Positions 23,180-30,728 of a stretch of DNA of 64,000 nt are shown piece after piece. The notes under the pieces were generated by a model, which had not been told where the DNA came from, did not search any database, and was given only the letters and a program-made list of their open reading frames with translations. The DNA is from a virus, in the IMG/VR virus record IMGVR_UViG_3300012919_000005, positions 1 to 64,000 of that record; one strand, written 5' to 3'. Numbering within the stretch: position 1 is the first letter of the stretch; the number at the start of each line of letters is the position of its first letter. The translations under genes and the position numbers were made by a program.

Positions 23180-23383
23180 TTAGTGTATTGTTAATAGGGT
23201 TACTATCAAGCCTGCCATAAATATTATGACTCCGCCCGCTCCTGATAAGAAATAAGTATCTATTCGATTTAGTCTTTCTTCAATTTCATCAAAGCGATTA
23301 AATGCAGTCTTCCACCGTTCTGCAACGGCAGTCTCAAGTTTTGCTAAATCTATCCTTATCTTATTCATTTCGTCATCTGACAT
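23180..23383 (-). CDS. Coiled-coil plus C-terminal membrane segment (XhlA/holin-like)
   Basis: 67 aa. N-terminal amphipathic coiled coil (KLETAVAERWKTAFNRF, IEERLNRIDTYF) followed by a single membrane helix GGVIIFMAGLIVTLLTIH. This is the layout of XhlA-like haemolysin/holin accessory proteins. First gene after the promoter at 23424-23452, with CGGAG before the ATG. Role in lysis is possible but the main lysis cassette is elsewhere. Confidence 0.7.
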   Translation of the reverse strand: MSDDEMNKIRIDLAKLETAVAERWKTAFNRFDEIEERLNRIDTYFLSGAGGVIIFMAGLIVTLLTIH

Positions 23384-23455: not shown

Positions 23456-25237
23456 CTATTTTCGTATGGTATAGATTTCAACGGGCTCATTCTTTCCTTT
23501 AACCTTTACTTGGTCTAAAAACTCGTAATCGTAATCATCGAGTAAACTGTGTTCGGAAATTATTAAGTCAGTATCGTACTCTTTACAACTTGATTCTAAA
23601 CGCGCAGCAAGGTTGACAGAATCCCCAAGAACGCTATAGTCGAAGCGAGTGCTAGAACCAAAGTTTCCGACCACGCAGAGTCCTGTATTGATTCCCGCTC
23701 CTGTATTAATTTGATCCAAGCCTTCTTCTCTGAGTCTTTCATTTAACTCTCCTAATGATTCTCGCATTTCGAGAACCGCCTTGGTTGCATTCTCCACTTG
23801 ATTTTCATCGTCAAGTGGTGCACCCCAAAATGCCATTATACAATCTCCCATATACTTGTCAATTGTACCGCCATGTTTTAATATAATCTCTGTTTGATTG
23901 TCTAAAAATCTATTTATTAACTCAGTTAATCCTTGTGGATCTTTTTGATATTTTTCCGATATTGGTGTAAATCCTCGAATATCAGAAAATAAAAATGTTA
24001 GTCGTTTTGTCTCCCCACCCAATCTCAGCAATGTTGGGTCTTTTTGTAATTTTTTAACCAAGGCAGGACTAACGTATGTCCCAAATTGTCGTTTTATTTC
24101 CATTTTCTCGAAGTAGGTCTTTATAAAATTCCTGAAACTTTCAATACTCCAGAATAAAATCGATATTAAAATAATGCCTGAAACGTCAAATAAGTAAGAA
24201 GATTGAAAGGCATACCAGGCTCCATATGCTGAACCTCCTACAACTAGCACTAAAGCGGGCAAGCTTAAATAAATTCTACTAGCTGTTAGTAATAAAACGA
24301 GCAAAGCTAAGACTGCAGCTCCTAGCTCCGCTCCTGCACTCCAATTTGGAATTGAAGGCGCTGTGCCTGATACTAAATTATGCAATACATTTGCTTGTAC
24401 CTCATGCGGGTATTTAGCTCCAGATGCAGTAGGAACTGGATTTACCACTCCTTCTGCTGTTACTCCAAATATAACAAAAGGTGCAGGAATTGGATCAGCC
24501 ATATATTGTGCTGCAGTTTGTCTATAAAACTTTACATTCGTATTTATCCAAATAAACCCATTAGCATCGGTATTCATATTTGGATAGTTAGGAACTCGAA
24601 TCCACTCTACACCTGTATCTCCAGTTTTAATTTGATAGCTTGGGTCGCCTACAGCGAGTCTAAGCATTTCTAGTGCAAAACTTGGGTATATTTTTCCCTC
24701 ACTTCCTACGACTACGGGCAGTCGCCTGACGACGCCGTCTAGCTCTGGTGAGGAGTTTACGATACCTTTGCCGTCTGCGCTTACCGATAAGATTGGTAAT
24801 TGTCGTAAAATTCCTGGATATGTTAATAGCCATTCTAATGGATCACCTCCTAATTGAGCAGTACCTACATGAGGGCCTAGCTCAGATGCTTGTGTTGATG
24901 CTGCGTAAGCTAACACTGTGGGTTTATTGGCTAATGCACTTGCTAAGTACAAGTCATTTTCGTTGCCACGTAAATCTGGGTCAGGCATAAGAATAGTAAA
25001 GCCCCCTATTCCAGGAGTCCTTTCTATCATTTGTCCATATAGTTTTCTTGGAAGTGGATAACCTCCGTATGCTTCGACGATGTTTTCATCGATGTCGACA
25101 ATTAGAATATTGTCATTTTGAATTTCTGGTTGACTATTCATAATATAGTCGAATGTTTTTAGTTCTAGAATTTGTAGAGGGTACGGATTCCAGATAAAGA
25201 ATCCGAGTACCACTCCAAAAGTAATTAATCTTACCAT
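23456..25237 (-). CDS. CHASE2-domain adenylate/guanylate cyclase
   Basis: 593 aa. Signal-anchor at residues 1-20; CHASE2 sensor about 30-290 outside the inner membrane (ILIVDIDENIV, GGYPLPRKLYG); membrane helices about 303-370; class III cyclase domain about 410-593. Catalytic residues appear intact: metal Asp419 (FLFSDIRGFT) and Asp465 (YMGDCIMAF), purine-binding Lys461, transition-state Asn542 and Arg546 (GDSVNLAARLE). It should make a cyclic nucleotide, most likely cAMP, in response to an envelope signal. Last gene of the cargo block; its ATG overlaps the preceding stop. Host-derived acquisition is likely. Confidence 0.93.
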   Translation of the reverse strand: MVRLITFGVVLGFFIWNPYPLQILELKTFDYIMNSQPEIQNDNILIVDIDENIVEAYGGYPLPRKLYGQMIERTPGIGGFTILMPDPDLRGNENDLYLASALANKPTVLAYAASTQASELGPHVGTAQLGGDPLEWLLTYPGILRQLPILSVSADGKGIVNSSPELDGVVRRLPVVVGSEGKIYPSFALEMLRLAVGDPSYQIKTGDTGVEWIRVPNYPNMNTDANGFIWINTNVKFYRQTAAQYMADPIPAPFVIFGVTAEGVVNPVPTASGAKYPHEVQANVLHNLVSGTAPSIPNWSAGAELGAAVLALLVLLLTASRIYLSLPALVLVVGGSAYGAWYAFQSSYLFDVSGIILISILFWSIESFRNFIKTYFEKMEIKRQFGTYVSPALVKKLQKDPTLLRLGGETKRLTFLFSDIRGFTPISEKYQKDPQGLTELINRFLDNQTEIILKHGGTIDKYMGDCIMAFWGAPLDDENQVENATKAVLEMRESLGELNERLREEGLDQINTGAGINTGLCVVGNFGSSTRFDYSVLGDSVNLAARLESSCKEYDTDLIISEHSLLDDYDYEFLDQVKVKGKNEPVEIYTIRK

Positions 25238-25521
25238 TTAACTTTGTTTGCCCAATAAGCTGCAGACATTTTTCCTTTGGCTATGTTTCTTCTATGTCTT
25301 GCTTTGAATGAAGCTCTTTTCTTCTTCATTCTCATTGATTCACCTTTCTTTGGTTTACCAGCAGTTTTTGCTCCCTGCTGTCCAAATCGTATTGTCTTTA
25401 TTTTGTTGCCTACTTTAGCAACTACAATATGAGACTTCTTAGGGTGTCCAGGTGTTCTTTTTGGTTTATTAAAACCTCTAACGCCTGCTCTTTTTAGTCT
25501 TGGATCTTTTTTTCTTGGCAT
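25231..25521 (-). CDS. Basic protein, DUF6321-like
   Basis: 96 aa, Lys/Arg-rich. Motifs KKSHIVVAKVGNKIKTIRFG and the ending KARHRRNIAKGKMSAAYWAN match a phage/viral family of unknown function that I recall as DUF6321. Overlaps the preceding basic gene by 44 nt and the cyclase start by 7 nt. Possible DNA-associated protein. Confidence 0.75.
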   Translation of the reverse strand: MPRKKDPRLKRAGVRGFNKPKRTPGHPKKSHIVVAKVGNKIKTIRFGQQGAKTAGKPKKGESMRMKKKRASFKARHRRNIAKGKMSAAYWANKVKW

Positions 25522-25801
25522 TGTTTGCTCTCCTTAAACTTGCCTTACCAGATTTAAATACTGATGCGACAGTTTTCTTGCCCATAACTTTTGCTCGTTG
25601 TTCTCCTACAGTTAGTATTTGAATTTTTCTAGCATAAGACTTACGGACTCTTTTTACTTTTCGTACTGTTGCTCTTGCATCTTTTACAGTTGCAAATTTA
25701 ATTCTAACGGTATCTTTTGGATTCTCGTCAGTATAGAGTCTTCTTCCAGACCCCTTAGGTTTTTTACCTGTTCCTTTTTTTGGATCTCTTTTCTTACTCA
25801 T
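25478..25801 (-). CDS. Basic phage protein with GSGRRLYTDENPKDT motif
   Basis: 107 aa, strongly basic at both ends. The core KGSGRRLYTDENPKDTV and ARKIQILTVGEQRAKVMGK is, to my memory, conserved in marine myoviruses without known function. The Lys/Arg C-terminus (AKKKRSKTKKSRR) suggests nucleic-acid binding. Confidence 0.72.
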   Translation of the reverse strand: MSKKRDPKKGTGKKPKGSGRRLYTDENPKDTVRIKFATVKDARATVRKVKRVRKSYARKIQILTVGEQRAKVMGKKTVASVFKSGKASLRRANNAKKKRSKTKKSRR

Positions 25802-26225
25802 TGTCTATTATTACCCAAGTATTATTTATAACTACTAACGCACCAAGTGTGTTAAAATTTTCTATTGTTTCAATGTCTTCAAAAACATTCATTGTATATA
25901 GTAAATAATTAACTGCTAATTTTTGAGCTATCAATCTTTCTAAAGAAGGATAGTCTGGTAGTAAAGGATTTAGCTCTTTTCCGTACCTTCCACGTATTGC
26001 TCTATTTGTAGTGTATACATCAAGTACATTCCAAGCAACCCATTCATGAATATGTGAGTTATCTGACATTTTAAAATGCATTGTTTGATTTTGATTGTAT
26101 TGTTCTATGAGTAAAGCATCTGCTTTAATTTGTTCATAGTCCCAAGGTATATCAACCTCCAGATTGGCGGATTGTAATGACTGAGCCAGACCCAGAGTTA
26201 AGAATAATGTTATAAGCTTTTCCAT
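25794..26225 (-). CDS. Secreted/periplasmic protein, DUF5658-like
   Basis: 143 aa with a signal peptide (LITLFLTLGLAQSLQSA, residues 3-19). The region WNVLDVYTTNRAIRGRYGKELNPLLP resembles the DxxTT...ENP pattern of DUF5658-type proteins. It overlaps the FecR gene by 74 nt and is likely co-translated with the curli-type cluster. No specific function known. Confidence 0.65.
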   Translation of the reverse strand: MEKLITLFLTLGLAQSLQSANLEVDIPWDYEQIKADALLIEQYNQNQTMHFKMSDNSHIHEWVAWNVLDVYTTNRAIRGRYGKELNPLLPDYPSLERLIAQKLAVNYLLYTMNVFEDIETIENFNTLGALVVINNTWVIIDNE

Positions 26226-27270
26226 CTTGTTCTATTATTATATTATAACTTGTAGTGCCATTTAAATCAAGTCTCACATTTTGATTAACTTGTCTTAAAA
26301 TGCTTACTACTTCCCCATCTGTAAATGTGGTAATTTGGGTTGTGGGGTCATTCCCAAATTGTGTACCTTGTAAATCTATAGGCGAAAAGCCATCTTGGGC
26401 TAACTCGTCCTCAGAGGATAGAGCATCTAGTTCTTCAATAACATCTAATAAATCCTCTAAAAAGTTTACGTCTAAGTATTCGATATCTAGTTCTGTGAAT
26501 TCTAATTCATCTGTAGCTAAATAATCTGTTTCTAACTCGTCGTAATCGAGGAAATCGATATCAAGAATATTGTTATCAGAGTCGTCAGTTCGAGCTTCTC
26601 CTGCAGTTTGTCCTTCTTCATCTTTCTTTGGTGGGCTCACTATGAGCATATTATCTATGAGGTCTAGTGTCAGATCCAGTATTACTGGTCTAGTAGGAAT
26701 TGCTTCCCATACACTCGTAACAGTAGACTCATATGGTTTGTTTAAAATTACAGAACCCAAAGCAGTTGTTACGACAATCTCCCCTGAGCTTATACCAAAT
26801 TCGTCTGGTAAAAGAATAACCAAACTTCTTCCTAATTCATCAACGGTAACAGTAAAATCTGTCCCACGAATTGCTATCTGAGAAGTTGGTGTTGATAGAT
26901 TAATGTTTTGTTTATTAATACTACCTATCTTTCCAGTTATAAAACGAGCAGTCCCACTGGCAAACTTAAGTGCCATTTCTGACTTGTTTGGGTCGGGATT
27001 AAAAACAACCTTATCAATAATAAGTTTGCTATGCTCTGTTAGTCTGACTTTGCTATCATCTAAAAACGATATTGCTAATCGGCCATTACCTGTGCGAACA
27101 TCGTCCATTTGCTGTATGTCAAAGCCAACCTCAGCGGTATAGGTGTCATCTCGTAAGACAGCACCTATTCCACGAAGTTCTGTGATATCACCTATATTGT
27201 CAGCATGAAGTGGAGGTGCCACCATCATTTTGAACAATACAAATATTTGAATTAGATGTATCAGCTTCAA
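26152..27270 (-). CDS. FecR-domain secreted protein
   Basis: 372 aa. Signal peptide residues 1-23 (LIHLIQIFVLFKMM...HA). FecR domain about 30-170: RGIGAVLRDDTY, DDVRTGNGRLAISFLDDSKVRL, GTARFITGKIG, TPTSQIAIRGTDFTV. A very acidic Asp/Glu/Leu linker spans about 220-290. The last 45 residues (QNVRLDLNG...IIIEQDGKAYNIIL...ITIRQSGG) look like curlin repeat strands. It overlaps the curlin-like gene by 71 nt. FecR proteins are often next to CHASE2 cyclases in bacteria and may relay an envelope signal; a surface-fibre adaptor is the alternative. Confidence 0.85.
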   Translation of the reverse strand: MKLIHLIQIFVLFKMMVAPPLHADNIGDITELRGIGAVLRDDTYTAEVGFDIQQMDDVRTGNGRLAISFLDDSKVRLTEHSKLIIDKVVFNPDPNKSEMALKFASGTARFITGKIGSINKQNINLSTPTSQIAIRGTDFTVTVDELGRSLVILLPDEFGISSGEIVVTTALGSVILNKPYESTVTSVWEAIPTRPVILDLTLDLIDNMLIVSPPKKDEEGQTAGEARTDDSDNNILDIDFLDYDELETDYLATDELEFTELDIEYLDVNFLEDLLDVIEELDALSSEDELAQDGFSPIDLQGTQFGNDPTTQITTFTDGEVVSILRQVNQNVRLDLNGTTSYNIIIEQDGKAYNIILNSGSGSVITIRQSGG

Positions 27271-27916
27271 TTTTCAACCAGTCTGCTGCAAGTGTAGAAG
27301 ATTGAGTAATAGTCATTGTATTACTATCTCCGTCTAAATCTAAATAGAAATAAGCGGCATCGCTACTGCTTGCTCCGTATCCACTGCCTGTGAATGTAAG
27401 TGTATTAGAGTCTCCTAAAATGTCCATGTAATTTGTGGCGTATGCAGAATCTAAGTCTAGAGTGATTTCATTACTGTCACCAGTAAATAACCAGTCTAAG
27501 TCTAAATACGATACGTCATCATCTTGGCCTAAGTCGATATCTGCTGTGTTTGAAGAACCAGTAATGTCAAAATTTAAATTAACATAGTCTGCTCCGTTTA
27601 AACCATCAGTATCCATACTTATAGTCCATTCGTTAGAGTCACCAATAAAATCAAATGTTCCAGTGAAGTTATCACCTATTATTCCGTCAGTAAGAAATAA
27701 GTTGGAGGCTCCTATTTGATTTAAATCTAATGTCCAAGAGGTGCCATTTAATATTGCTGCTGTCATTGAACCTGTTGTTGCATTTAATCCACCAATTAAA
27801 TTGCTGGAACCAAGTTGTTCAATATCTATTGCTGCATTGTCACCTGTTTGGTCGATATAGATTTCATTGTCTGCATAGAGACCGATTGATAAAAATAAGG
27901 CAAATAAAGCTCTCAT
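27200..27916 (-). CDS. Curlin-like secreted fibre protein
   Basis: 238 aa. Signal peptide residues 1-16 (MRALFALFLSIGLYA). The mature part has about seven imperfect 25-30-residue repeats built on xDxxGxSNxxxI, for example IYIDQTGDNAAIDIEQ, FIGDSNEW, ITGSSNTADI, FTGDSNEITL, LGDSNTLTF, LDGDSNTMTI. This Gln/Gly/Asn ladder is the hallmark of curlins (CsgA/CsgB), which stack into amyloid. It is more acidic than CsgA and has two Cys in the last 17 residues. It directly follows csgG, the channel that would export it. Confidence 0.85.
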   Translation of the reverse strand: MRALFALFLSIGLYADNEIYIDQTGDNAAIDIEQLGSSNLIGGLNATTGSMTAAILNGTSWTLDLNQIGASNLFLTDGIIGDNFTGTFDFIGDSNEWTISMDTDGLNGADYVNLNFDITGSSNTADIDLGQDDDVSYLDLDWLFTGDSNEITLDLDSAYATNYMDILGDSNTLTFTGSGYGASSSDAAYFYLDLDGDSNTMTITQSSTLAADWLKIEADTSNSNICIVQNDGGTSTSC

Positions 27917-27917
27917 T

Positions 27918-28769
27918 TTACTCTCCCATGTAGTACTTCCAGTACCCTTTCTCTATTCCTTGTTTAATTAACGCTACTACTCCTGTTTCTACTGCTGCTT
28001 GCACAGCGATATACTTAGGTTCATTCATTGTGTTTCCACTTTCAAATTCAACGAGTTCAGTATCATTTGAATGAAATCTAAAATAGTCATTACTTAAACC
28101 TACGGATAGAATTGCTTTTGAAGTAAGGATCTCCAATAAGATTTCTCCTGTACTCACAGAAACTAATCTCATAGAAACGATTACCTTATCTTCACGATAT
28201 TGTTTAGAAGTGCCAATGCCTAAGTTTCTAGCACCTACACCTCCAGTTAATAAGTTAGTATTGTAATCAACAATACCACCTTCGATAATAAGACCAGCAA
28301 ACAGTAAAGGTTGCTGCTCTTTATCGTCTTCAAAACTTTGTCTTGTTTGTCTAATTAATTGTCTTTCTTTTGTTAAGTGGTCTAACCCTTTTCTTTCTAC
28401 CACTTTGAAGAAGCCGGATTGTTTTAATGCACGAATTAAATATGCTTCTGGTGCTTGTGTGACTGCACTTGAGAAGTCTGCTATACCGTCCCTTGATTTT
28501 CTTTGACCAGTTAAGTCTTCAAACTTATATACTGCAACAACAGGAACTCGTGCCGGTAATGGCACAGTAGTTATTGCTTTTGTTATCGGTTGCTCAATAA
28601 TAGAATCACCAGAGAAACATTTTGCTTCTCCAACAATTGTGACTAAGTCTTTGTAATCCCCTTGAGGATTAGTTAGACAGGGTGATGCGTATTTCCAGTG
28701 CGTTGCGCAACTAGAAACCAAAATCGCCGATAGGGATAGTAATAGTAGTTGTTTCACCTGTAGCTTCAT
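27918..28769 (-). CDS. csgG: Curli secretion channel lipoprotein CsgG
   Basis: 283 aa. Signal peptide with lipobox LVSSC (lipidated Cys21). Close to Escherichia coli CsgG along its length, especially VVAVYKFEDLTGQ, VERKGLDHLTKERQLIRQ, GGVGARNLGIG, VSMRLVSVSTGEILLEILTSKAIL. In the constriction loop the aromatic of CsgG Phe56 is kept (ADFSSAV), while Asn55 is Asp and Tyr51 is not conserved, so pore selectivity may differ. CsgG nonamers form the outer-membrane channel for curlin. CsgF lies immediately upstream, curlin immediately downstream. Confidence 0.95.
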   Translation of the reverse strand: MKLQVKQLLLLSLSAILVSSCATHWKYASPCLTNPQGDYKDLVTIVGEAKCFSGDSIIEQPITKAITTVPLPARVPVVAVYKFEDLTGQRKSRDGIADFSSAVTQAPEAYLIRALKQSGFFKVVERKGLDHLTKERQLIRQTRQSFEDDKEQQPLLFAGLIIEGGIVDYNTNLLTGGVGARNLGIGTSKQYREDKVIVSMRLVSVSTGEILLEILTSKAILSVGLSNDYFRFHSNDTELVEFESGNTMNEPKYIAVQAAVETGVVALIKQGIEKGYWKYYMGE

Positions 28770-29196
28770 TAAATATAGTTAGGGTGATTGATATACCATC
28801 TGATGTCCAAGTAATTAGATTATCAAATAATGTAAATGACCCTTCCGTTGCAGGATTCTCTCCAAATAGCTGGTCTACCAACTGTCTAGAAAGCTGTGCA
28901 TAAATTCTACTCTCAAAGTTCTTTAAAAATCTAGCAAGAGTAGTATTATCTTCTTCTCTTTGCAAAGCTTCTTGCATTGCTTTTATTTCTAGTCTTAGTG
29001 CCTCTTTTCTTGAGAACTCTTGATTCTCAATGGTTAAGTAGTGACTTGATGTACCTATGCCACTAAAAGAGGGTGACTTGAATTCATGTTTAATTTCATC
29101 TGCAGAAAGTTCTGCTACAAATAAAACGCTAAGTAGTACAAAAATTGTGCCTAGTACAGCATTAGATACTCTATTGTTTATTTTTCTTTCGTTCAT
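28711..29196 (-). CDS. csgF: Curli assembly factor CsgF
   Basis: 161 aa with a signal peptide (VLGTIFVLLSVLFVAELSA). The mature start HEFKSPSFSGIG matches CsgF TFQFRNPNFGG, the part that plugs into the CsgG pore, and the C-terminal half has SRQLVDQLFG and ITLTIFNEATGETTTITIP like CsgF. CsgF sits on the outside of CsgG and anchors the nucleator. It overlaps csgG by 59 nt. No CsgE, CsgC or CsgD homologue was seen in the window. Confidence 0.9.
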   Translation of the reverse strand: MNERKINNRVSNAVLGTIFVLLSVLFVAELSADEIKHEFKSPSFSGIGTSSHYLTIENQEFSRKEALRLEIKAMQEALQREEDNTTLARFLKNFESRIYAQLSRQLVDQLFGENPATEGSFTLFDNLITWTSDGISITLTIFNEATGETTTITIPIGDFGF

Positions 29197-29425
29197 TTTC
29201 TTTTAACTGTAAAACTGTGTCCAGTTTCTTTTGCAGTCGAATCATATCATTATCTAACATTCTTATCTGGTCAATTAACTGTAAGATTGTCATCTTCATG
29301 TCTTCGATTGCAGGGTCTATCTTTTCGGTTACTGTAGTCCAAACAAAGTATACGAAATATCCTAATCCAACCATTGCAACAACTGGAAAACCAAATTGTT
29401 GAATAGCATCAATCACGTCTTGCAT
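29171..29425 (-). CDS. Small membrane protein, UviB/BhlA-like (copy 2)
   Basis: 84 aa: one membrane helix (FPVVAMVGLGYFVYFVW, residues about 13-29) then a charged coiled coil ILQLIDQIRMLDNDMIRLQKKLD. This resembles UviB/BhlA holin-like proteins common in marine phages. It appears to be a paralogue of the gene just upstream (shared MxNDMIxI/L pattern). Precedes csgF with overlapping reading frames. Confidence 0.72.
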   Translation of the reverse strand: MQDVIDAIQQFGFPVVAMVGLGYFVYFVWTTVTEKIDPAIEDMKMTILQLIDQIRMLDNDMIRLQKKLDTVLQLKENERKKNKQ

Positions 29426-29702
29426 CTATACTTCCTGATTCTACAAAATTTTCTGCTCTTGCTATTTTATCTAAGTCTGGTGTGAGTCCAAGAGCTGAAC
29501 TTACACTCATGTCTATCTTAATCATATCATTGTTCATTGTTTTAATACGAGTAATTAGCATTTTTGAAATACCTTGTACTTCACAAGTATCGCCTACTAC
29601 ATCGTCCATAATTTTTCTTATGATTAAAAAGATGAAGCCTCCCATAAACAGTGCTGCTGCTATTGGTGCTCCTACTTGTCCTATTATATCAAATACTTCC
29701 AT
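29409..29702 (-). CDS. Small membrane protein, UviB/BhlA-like (copy 1)
   Basis: 97 aa: N-terminal membrane helix (GAPIAAALFMGGFIFLIIRK) and a following helix with ITRIKTMNNDMIKIDMSV. Same plan as its downstream neighbour. ATG overlaps the stop of nothing but follows the Fe-S carrier gene at once. Could be a holin or a virion membrane component. Confidence 0.7.
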   Translation of the reverse strand: MEVFDIIGQVGAPIAAALFMGGFIFLIIRKIMDDVVGDTCEVQGISKMLITRIKTMNNDMIKIDMSVSSALGLTPDLDKIARAENFVESGSIDARRD

Positions 29703-30067
29703 TATACCTCTATTGCGAATATTTTATCTTTATCTACCTTTTCTAAATCAAAATTTATTGAAACTCCACAACCACAAGAAGACTGCTCTTTTGGGTTGAT
29801 AAACTTAAATACTTCATTTAGTCCTTCTACTTGAAAGTCTAATGTCATTCCTACTAAGTATGGAACTGATATTTTATCTATTAGTATCCTAAAGAGTCCA
29901 TAATCCAATTCCACGTCTTCTTCAGTAGCTGCATTATTAGTCCGATCAAATACATACTCAAAACCAGCACACCCCCCACCAGTAATACCCAAGCGGATAC
30001 CAGTAAACTTCTCTCTTTCCTGTTTCTCCAAAATCTTGGTGATTGCTTCATCTGTAATCTCTATCAT
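29702..30067 (-). CDS. A-type iron-sulfur carrier (IscA/ErpA-like)
   Basis: 121 aa, normal length. The three family cysteines are present: Cys33 (GGGCAGFEY) and Cys98-x-Cys100 (SSCGCGVS). Such proteins receive [2Fe-2S] or [4Fe-4S] clusters from scaffolds and pass them to targets. The ATG overlaps the stop of the preceding small gene. In the same operon as an IscU-like scaffold, so it forms a minimal scaffold-plus-carrier pair without cysteine desulfurase; sulfur would come from the host IscS. Confidence 0.95.
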   Translation of the reverse strand: MIEITDEAITKILEKQEREKFTGIRLGITGGGCAGFEYVFDRTNNAATEEDVELDYGLFRILIDKISVPYLVGMTLDFQVEGLNEVFKFINPKEQSSCGCGVSINFDLEKVDKDKIFAIEV

Positions 30068-30314: not shown

Positions 30315-30728
30315 TCATTTATTATCTTTGTCATGTTGCTTCTGCTCCCAGTTTTCAATTGCTTTTTTAATCGAATCTTCAGCTAAAACAGAACAGTGTA
30401 ATTTTATTGGAGGCAATTGTAATGCCTCGGCTATGTCTTTATCTTTTATTAATTTGGCTTCTTCTATGCTAAGGCCTTTCAGCATTTCAACAAACATAGT
30501 AGAGGAAGCAATTGCGCTTCCACAACCATAGGTCTTAAACTTGATATCTGTAATAATATCGTTTTCATCTAGTTTAAGTTGTAACTTCATGACATCACCA
30601 CATGCGGGTGCTCCTGTCATTCCTGTTGCTACATTTGGGTCTTTTGGATCAAACCGACCGACGCTAAACTGCTGCGGACTGTTCAAGACTCCGTAAAATC
30701 TTTCTGTGACTTCTTTACTATAGGCCAT
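30315..30728 (-). CDS. iscU: IscU-type iron-sulfur scaffold
   Basis: 137 aa. All active-site elements are intact: Cys43 and Asp45 (APACGDVMKL), Cys69 (TYGCGSAIASS), the HscA-binding LPPIK loop (about 105-109) and Cys112 (KLHCSVLAED). This is a complete IscU rather than a fragment of NifU. It should build clusters with host IscS. Its ATG overlaps the terS stop (TAATG), tying its synthesis to the packaging gene. Likely acquired from a proteobacterium. Confidence 0.96.
   Translation of the reverse strand: MAYSKEVTERFYGVLNSPQQFSVGRFDPKDPNVATGMTGAPACGDVMKLQLKLDENDIITDIKFKTYGCGSAIASSTMFVEMLKGLSIEEAKLIKDKDIAEALQLPPIKLHCSVLAEDSIKKAIENWEQKQHDKDNK

What the first reader, a model, noticed from the sequence alone, without database searches (positions are those of the whole stretch)
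23456..27270. CHASE2 cyclase and FecR protein linked to the curli cluster: possible phage envelope-to-cAMP signalling
The cyclase keeps all metal, purine and transition-state residues seen in active class III enzymes, and FecR-domain proteins commonly neighbour CHASE2 cyclases in bacteria. In a phage, this would let virus-made surface material feed into cyclic nucleotide levels during infection.
Basis: partly seen in the sequence, partly recalled or inferred. Interest (0 to 1): 0.75.

Follow-up and report, generated by a model that had tools for sequence, protein, structure and literature searches.

The report
Phage curli genes with a cyclase
An aquatic bacterial virus carries genes for sticky surface fibres together with an enzyme that probably makes the signal molecule cAMP; this gene set was already published in SAR11 viruses, but here it appears in a third kind of virus, the enzyme almost never travels without the fibre genes, and a few relatives also carry a protein that can probably bind the signal.

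Summary
The window is part of a T5-like siphovirus. It encodes an intact CHASE2-class III cyclase (23456-25237) and a secreted FecR-domain protein (26152-27270) downstream of csgF, csgG and a curlin gene. The module is not new: Wittmers et al. 2022 (PMC9599517) described curli genes with FecR and an adenylate cyclase in pelagi-podo- and myoviruses.

New here: (1) a third carrier lineage (T5-like), plus contigs over 280 kb; (2) tight coupling: 69/69 distinct cyclase loci carry csgF-csgG-curlin-fecR, and 38/40 distinct csgG loci carry the cyclase; (3) four of five catalytic residues essentially invariant (the transition-state Asn is Ser in 40 of 203), median dN/dS 0.15; (4) phage FecR proteins end in the same IxIxQ strand as phage curlins (164/175, against 6/931 other ORFs); (5) the genes called "histidine kinases" are small membrane proteins without kinase domains; (6) four contigs encode a cNMP-binding protein, next to csgF in the three where csgF is present. 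Most Pelagibacteraceae genomes (233/248) lack PF00027, so the usual cAMP receptor is missing if SAR11 is the host. The host is undetermined.

Best explanation: the cyclase reports envelope or fibre-assembly state, via FecR, to the infected cytoplasm. No biochemistry exists.

The parts
23456..25237 (-). CHASE2 sensor + three TM helices + class III nucleotide cyclase (593 aa; cyclase domain about 410-593)
   Evidence: Pfam CHASE2 and Guanylate_cyc; phrog_35576 E=5e-164; catalytic residues D419 K461 D465 S535 N542 R546; TM at 301-319, 322-340, 347-365
26152..27270 (-). Secreted FecR-domain protein with a curlin-like C-terminal strand (SVITIRQSGG)
   Evidence: Pfam FecR; C-terminal IxIxQ motif in 164/175 phage relatives vs 6/931 other ORFs; I365, I367, Q369 near-invariant
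27200..27916 (-). Curlin-repeat fibre subunit (CsgA/B-like)
   Evidence: Pfam Curlin_rpt E=1.4e-4; repeats IYIDQTGDNA, IDIEQLGSSN, LDLNQIGASN
27918..28769 (-). CsgG outer-membrane curli secretion pore
   Evidence: Pfam CsgG E=2.4e-47
28711..29196 (-). CsgF curli chaperone / pore partner
   Evidence: Pfam CsgF E=1.1e-17
29171..29425 (-). Small membrane protein sTM1 (84 aa), paralogue of the next; probably what was called 'histidine kinase' in the literature
   Evidence: phrog_18771 E=4e-27; no kinase family hit; an sTM gene in 67/69 cyclase loci; 120 of 287 relatives contain no histidine
29409..29702 (-). Small membrane protein sTM2 (97 aa), same family as sTM1
   Evidence: phrog_18771 E=5e-23; motif NNDMIKID shared with sTM1
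25794..26225 (-). 143-aa protein with N-terminal hydrophobic stretch, weak DUF5658 resemblance; in many relatives this slot holds a second curlin-like gene
   Evidence: DUF5658 E=0.024, below cut-off; slot comparison
25478..25801 (-). Small basic protein inside the module in this phage; elsewhere at other positions
   Evidence: no Pfam or PHROG hit; position varies
25231..25521 (-). Small basic protein of phrog_7595, position varies among phages
   Evidence: phrog_7595 E=2.7e-41; position varies; also in cyano- and roseophages

Best explanation
The region is a phage-borne curli (type VIII secretion) module with a built-in cyclic-nucleotide branch. SHOWN by sequence: CsgG and CsgF, a curlin-repeat subunit, a secreted FecR-domain protein and an inner-membrane CHASE2-cyclase are conserved together under purifying selection. 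INFERRED: curlin is exported through CsgG/CsgF. The FecR protein sits in the periplasm or at the pore and uses its curlin-like C-terminal strand to join the fibre or its subunits. The CHASE2 domain reads the state of FecR (free, bound or exported) and switches the cytoplasmic cyclase, so that cAMP in the infected cell reports fibre or envelope assembly. In a minority of related phages a cNMP-binding protein with hydrophobic C-terminal helices, encoded divergently next to csgF, would be the direct receptor. In the window phage the receptor is unknown.
For: Unbiased synteny: 69/69 cyclase-anchored and 38/40 CsgG-anchored distinct loci. Catalytic residues kept and median dN/dS 0.12-0.15 for AC, FecR, CsgG and CsgF. 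All 60 sampled phage cyclases form one clade (support 0.984) against an alphaproteobacterial sample, across T5-like, T4-like, podo- and >280-kb contigs. Identities of AC and FecR correlate across loci (r=0.70). The IxIxQ C-terminus is shared by FecR (164/175) and curlins (150/277), but not by CsgG (0/181) or other long ORFs (6/931); a short profile match FecR C-term vs curlin E=1.3e-4, control FecR domain vs curlin E=0.19. A cNMP-binding protein lies divergently beside csgF in all three contigs where csgF is present; a fourth contig ends there. Bacterial precedents for CHASE2 logic: S. meliloti CHASE2 cyclases respond to protein signals through the outer-membrane barrel NsrA (PMC7529298, PMC13001267); CyaD1 without CHASE2 is constitutively active (PMC5498481); a FecR + CHASE2-kinase operon controls Burkholderia biofilm (PMC5192318).
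Against: The window's 75.5-kb record has no cNMP-binding domain, and only 1 of 45 phage records searched has one. If the host is SAR11, 233 of 248 genomes have no PF00027 receptor. FecR-CHASE2 contact is inferred from neighbourhood only. The transition-state Asn is Ser in 40 of 203 homologues, including Melnitz, so part of the family may be weak or altered. FecR correlates better with CsgG/CsgF (r about 0.82) than with AC (0.70).
Confidence: 0.45

Rival explanations
1. The cyclase simply raises cAMP to reprogramme host transcription (CRP-type), including expression of the curli genes, as Wittmers et al. suggested by analogy with CRP-CsgD in E. coli; FecR and fibre state are not the signal.
For: Proposed in PMC9599517; CRP-cAMP controls csgD in E. 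coli according to that paper's citation; 15 of 248 Pelagibacteraceae genomes do have a PF00027 protein.
Against: 233 of 248 Pelagibacteraceae genomes have no PF00027 domain; no CRP was seen in phages, the PF00027 proteins found have hydrophobic helices and no HTH hit; does not explain why the cyclase is confined to the FecR-curli module.
Confidence: 0.2
2. The module is a lysis-timing or pore device: CsgG/CsgF form an outer-membrane pore, the paired small membrane proteins act like holins, and the cyclase times them.
For: Lysis role proposed for Melnitz (PMC9004378); an sTM gene in 67/69 loci and retained when the module is rearranged; one sTM has a very weak holin hit (phrog_4898 E=0.055); the cNMP-binding proteins have hydrophobic C-terminal helices.
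Against: Curlin and FecR genes are always present (69/69), so fibre making looks intended; no holin family reaches significance; the Melnitz authors thought curlin genes were missing, but they are annotated there.
Confidence: 0.15
3. The cyclase is a counter-defence or decoy: flooding the cell with a cyclic nucleotide to disturb nucleotide-signalling immunity or exclude competing phages.
For: The cyclase domain is homologous to Pycsar cyclases (PycC profile E=3e-29) and the neighbouring cNMP-binding protein of L107 to Pycsar effectors (PycTIR E=2.4e-11).
Against: Homology is at superfamily level only; the protein has a periplasmic sensor, which a decoy enzyme would not need; strict linkage to curli genes.
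Confidence: 0.06
4. FecR is an iron-responsive anti-sigma regulator of the module.
For: FecR domain present; called iron-dependent regulator in PMC9599517.
Against: N-terminal signal peptide directly followed by the FecR domain, no anti-sigma part found by Pfam; no Sigma70_r2 match in 14 of 18 phage records, the T5-like relatives searched among them.
Confidence: 0.03
5. The cyclase is a decaying hitchhiker without function.
For: 40 of 203 homologues have Ser for the transition-state Asn.
Against: Median dN/dS 0.151; Lys, both Asp and Arg invariant; kept across phages of very different kinds.
Confidence: 0.04

Closest known systems
Pelagiphage T8SS module (Wittmers et al. 2022, PMC9599517; Zaragoza-Solas et al. 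2020, PMC7029224)
   Same: Same genes in the same order: small genes, CsgF, CsgG, curlin, FecR, (second curlin), adenylate cyclase; CsgE not detected in the module
   Different: Carrier here is a T5-like siphovirus, not a T4-like myovirus or HTVC023P-type podovirus; the second curlin slot holds a different gene; the 'histidine kinases' are small membrane proteins; FecR does not look like an iron anti-sigma regulator
Cultured phages HTVC008M (gp014-gp019) and Melnitz (gp99-gp104)
   Same: Annotated CsgF-CsgG-curlin-(FecR)-curlin-cyclase run, 36-39% identity of the cyclase
   Different: T4-like genomes of 141-147 kb; Melnitz cyclase has Ser for the transition-state Asn
S. meliloti CHASE2 cyclases CyaD1/CyaD2/CyaK with outer-membrane NsrA and regulator Clr
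   Same: CHASE2-class III cyclase whose activity depends on an outer-membrane protein partner
Burkholderia BiofilmReg operon (FecR-LysM protein + CHASE2 histidine kinase)
   Same: Secreted FecR protein encoded next to a CHASE2 sensor, linked to biofilm
   Different: Output is a kinase, not a cyclase; no curli genes
Pycsar (pyrimidine cyclase + cNMP-binding effector)
   Same: Class III cyclase, and in four related phage contigs a cNMP-binding protein with hydrophobic C-terminus
   Different: Membrane sensor cyclase in a curli operon; encoded by phages; window phage has no effector

Membership tests
Phage curli/T8SS-FecR-cyclase module (PMC9599517) | CsgF, CsgG and curlin repeat genes together | tested here: met
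   Pfam hits for all three at 27200-29196
Phage curli/T8SS-FecR-cyclase module (PMC9599517) | FecR directly after curlin, cyclase further downstream | tested here: met
   FecR 26152-27270, cyclase 23456-25237; same order in relatives
Phage curli/T8SS-FecR-cyclase module (PMC9599517) | One or two 'histidine kinase' genes before CsgF (an annotation in that paper, not a functional requirement) | tested here: inconclusive
   Two genes lie at that place but are 84-97 aa membrane proteins with no kinase family match; probably the same genes, mis-named; the paper's sequences could not be compared
Class III nucleotide cyclase | Two metal Asp, purine Lys, transition-state Asn and Arg | tested here: met
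   D419, D465, K461, N542, R546; best solved relative CyaB 3r5g E=2e-39
Class III nucleotide cyclase | Product is cAMP | not testable with these tools
   K461 with S535 fits adenylate cyclases by established knowledge; no assay
CHASE2 sensor protein | CHASE2 domain followed by three TM helices and a cytoplasmic output | tested here: met
   CHASE2 10-316, TM 301-319, 322-340, 347-365, cyclase 411-591
FecR anti-sigma regulator (FecI/FecR type) | Cytoplasmic anti-sigma part plus TM before the FecR domain | tested here: not met
   Signal-like N-terminus, only the FecR domain found
FecR anti-sigma regulator (FecI/FecR type) | Cognate FecI-type sigma factor | tested here: inconclusive
   No Sigma70_r2 hit in the T5-like relatives searched; window record not searched with this family; host unknown
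Canonical enterobacterial curli operons | CsgD and CsgE present | tested here: inconclusive
   None among module ORFs scanned with Pfam; rest of genome not scanned for them
Pycsar defence | Cyclase paired with a cNMP-binding effector | tested here: not met
   No PF00027 in the 75.5-kb record; a partner exists only in four other contigs

The most novel reading that the evidence does not exclude
Phages carry a complete self-contained signalling circuit (FecR-curlin sensor, CHASE2 cyclase and, in some, a membrane cNMP receptor) that imposes a cyclic-nucleotide pathway on cells lacking one, so that virus-built surface fibres control the timing of infection or lysis.
Probability: 0.15. Interest if true: 0.88.

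Novelty: new member of a known kind. Interest (0 to 1): 0.5.

Why it matters
Curli genes in SAR11 phages have been a puzzle since 2020. The near-absolute coupling with a cyclase, the curlin-like tail of FecR and the occasional cNMP-binding neighbour turn 'odd auxiliary genes' into a testable sensor-messenger circuit. If the host is SAR11, the phage would install a second messenger in cells that mostly lack both a class III cyclase (245/248) and the common receptor domain (233/248). That would make the role of phage curli (fibre, pore or signal) directly testable with a few expression assays.

Tried and rejected
Host inference failed. There are no tRNAs in the window, the rest of its record or a 105-kb relative. 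IscU/NifU look-alikes in 'Pelagibacter', 'Synechococcus' and 'Planctomycetaceae' MAGs gave three different hosts; the Pelagibacter one is itself a phage contig, so binning is not evidence. Terminase searches of Pelagibacteraceae and Alphaproteobacteria found nothing at E<=1e-60 and lacked a positive control.

Rejected: FecR as an iron anti-sigma factor; sTM genes as histidine kinases; a CRP-type regulator in the phage (no PF00027). A long curlin-repeat fusion in FecR was not supported: only a terminal strand of about 12 columns matches, and Pfam finds no Curlin_rpt in FecR. The claim that FecR commonly neighbours CHASE2 in bacteria was weaker than stated (3 of 28).
Full report
OBSERVATION. The cyclase protein (593 aa) carries CHASE2 (E=5.8e-30) and a class III cyclase domain (E=1.4e-20); the second protein carries a FecR domain (E=1e-11). 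Upstream on the same strand lie curlin (27200-27916), CsgG (27918-28769), CsgF (28711-29196) and two small paralogous membrane proteins (29171-29425 and 29409-29702). Terminase, portal and capsid genes follow downstream. The record is 75,528 bases. Its terminase is 49% identical to that of T5-like Pectobacterium phage My1, its polymerase about 45% to T5-like Proteus phages, and it has a siphovirus tape measure. No phage record matches the central 24 kb by megablast.

PRIOR KNOWLEDGE. The module is published. Zaragoza-Solas 2020 (PMC7029224) reported CsgF/CsgG in pelagimyophages. Wittmers 2022 (PMC9599517) reported CsgF, CsgG, curlin, FecR, adenylate cyclase and 'histidine kinase' genes in pelagi-podoviruses and myoviruses. 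HTVC008M and Melnitz records annotate the cyclase. A later literature search found no other paper with this combination (open-access library only).

HOW TIGHT THE LINK IS. Scans of IMG/VR seeded with the cyclase and, separately, with CsgG gave hundreds of hits, of which up to 80 per scan were kept. After removing identical proteins and requiring enough flank, 69 of 69 cyclase-anchored loci hold CsgF, CsgG, curlin and FecR, and 67 of 69 also hold the small membrane genes; 38 of 40 CsgG-anchored loci hold the cyclase and 40 of 40 FecR. The commonest order is sTM-sTM-CsgF-CsgG-curlin-FecR-(curlin)-cyclase. Carriers include dozens of T5-like relatives of the window, T4-like phages, a podovirus-like contig in a SAR11-family MAG (L152) and contigs of 289-364 kb (L180, L209, L216, L220, L227). 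All 60 sampled phage cyclases form one clade (support 0.984) against 28 alphaproteobacterial CHASE2 proteins. The bacterial sample is narrow, so one origin is likely but not proven.

IS THE CYCLASE ALIVE? Metal Asp419/Asp465, Lys461 and Arg546 are invariant among aligned phage homologues; Asn542 is Asn in 163 and Ser in 40. Position 535 is Ser, Asp or Thr, which by established knowledge fits adenylate rather than guanylate cyclases. Median dN/dS is 0.151 for the cyclase and 0.12-0.14 for FecR, CsgG and CsgF. The closest solved relative is CyaB (3r5g, E=2e-39).

FecR. The protein has a signal-like N-terminus and no anti-sigma part, and no Sigma70_r2 gene was seen in the T5-like relatives searched, so the iron-regulator reading is unlikely. 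Its last residues (SVITIRQSGG) resemble the ends of phage curlins. The motif [IVL]x[IVL]xQ in the last ten residues occurs in 164 of 175 phage FecR proteins, 150 of 277 curlins, 0 of 181 CsgG and 6 of 931 other long ORFs. Profile comparison supports a short match (E=1.3e-4; control 0.19). Rows are related by descent, so the counts are not independent events. I infer that FecR can join or cap the fibre, or use the same exit.

THE 'HISTIDINE KINASES'. The genes before csgF are 84-120 aa membrane proteins with a shared core (RMLDNDMIRL / KTMNNDMIRID), no kinase domain, and no histidine at all in 120 of 287. I believe these are the genes named HK by Wittmers; the match rests on position and number ('sometimes two'), since the supplementary data could not be read.

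WHO READS cAMP? The window record has no PF00027. Of 45 further phage record searches, one rang: the 61.7-kb contig behind L107. There a 216-aa protein with a canonical phosphate-binding cassette (FIGEGALMSGAPRNATVKA) and two hydrophobic C-terminal stretches starts 18 bases from csgF on the opposite strand. L156 and L359 (43-50% identical) have the same arrangement; L358 encodes a relative but its contig ends there. L107 and L156 lack the sTM pair in the stretch held, and none was found in L359. The L107 contig shows tail-spike, exonuclease and HNH matches but no terminase, so it is probably an incomplete phage genome. In Pelagibacteraceae 245 of 248 genomes have no class III cyclase, and the two strong hits (G001, G013) are on phage contigs; 233 of 248 have no PF00027. 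Group membership rests on the title of one MAG. The host of the window phage is not established.

MECHANISM. Bacterial CHASE2 cyclases can respond to outer-membrane partners (NsrA with CyaD1/D2/K) and are restrained by CHASE2; FecR with a CHASE2 kinase lies in a biofilm-controlling operon. By analogy I propose that the phage FecR couples curlin export to the CHASE2 cyclase. Shown: gene content, conservation, residues, shared C-terminal motif. Inferred: localisation, contact, direction of regulation, product and receptor.

VERDICT. A real, widespread and mostly already described module; the window adds a T5-like carrier. The new sequence evidence makes the signalling idea more specific but leaves the receptor, and hence the outcome, open.

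Noticed in passing
L107:8767-9417 (-), L156:510-1196 (-), L359:6998-7654 (+), L358:264-923 (+): Phage-encoded cNMP-binding proteins with hydrophobic C-terminal helices, divergently adjacent to csgF in the three contigs that include csgF.
   Followed up: partly
window 29171-29702: Paired small membrane proteins (phrog_18771) that move with the curli module across phage types, even when it is rearranged; probably mis-named histidine kinases in the literature.
   Followed up: partly
window 29702-30067 and 30315-30728: A-type Fe-S carrier and NifU/IscU-like genes beside the module, conserved in many T5-like relatives.
   Followed up: no
L111/L154 (NZJW01000021.1) and L152 (G013:C1): Phage contigs carrying the curli module are binned inside SAR11-family MAGs used as species representatives.
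   Followed up: partly
L083 (Melnitz) cyclase and 39 other homologues: A set of phage cyclases has Ser in place of the transition-state Asn; possibly weak or altered enzymes.
   Followed up: no
L082:10583-11908 (HTVC008M gp018): The 'hypothetical' protein before the cyclase has three curlin repeats and a PA14 domain, so it may be a fibre-borne adhesin.
   Followed up: no
window 23180-23383: 67-aa protein with a coiled-coil-like stretch and a C-terminal TM helix next to the cyclase, conserved in most T5-like relatives; no named family.
   Followed up: no
L109: Module genes broken into several frames in one contig, probably sequencing errors.
   Followed up: no
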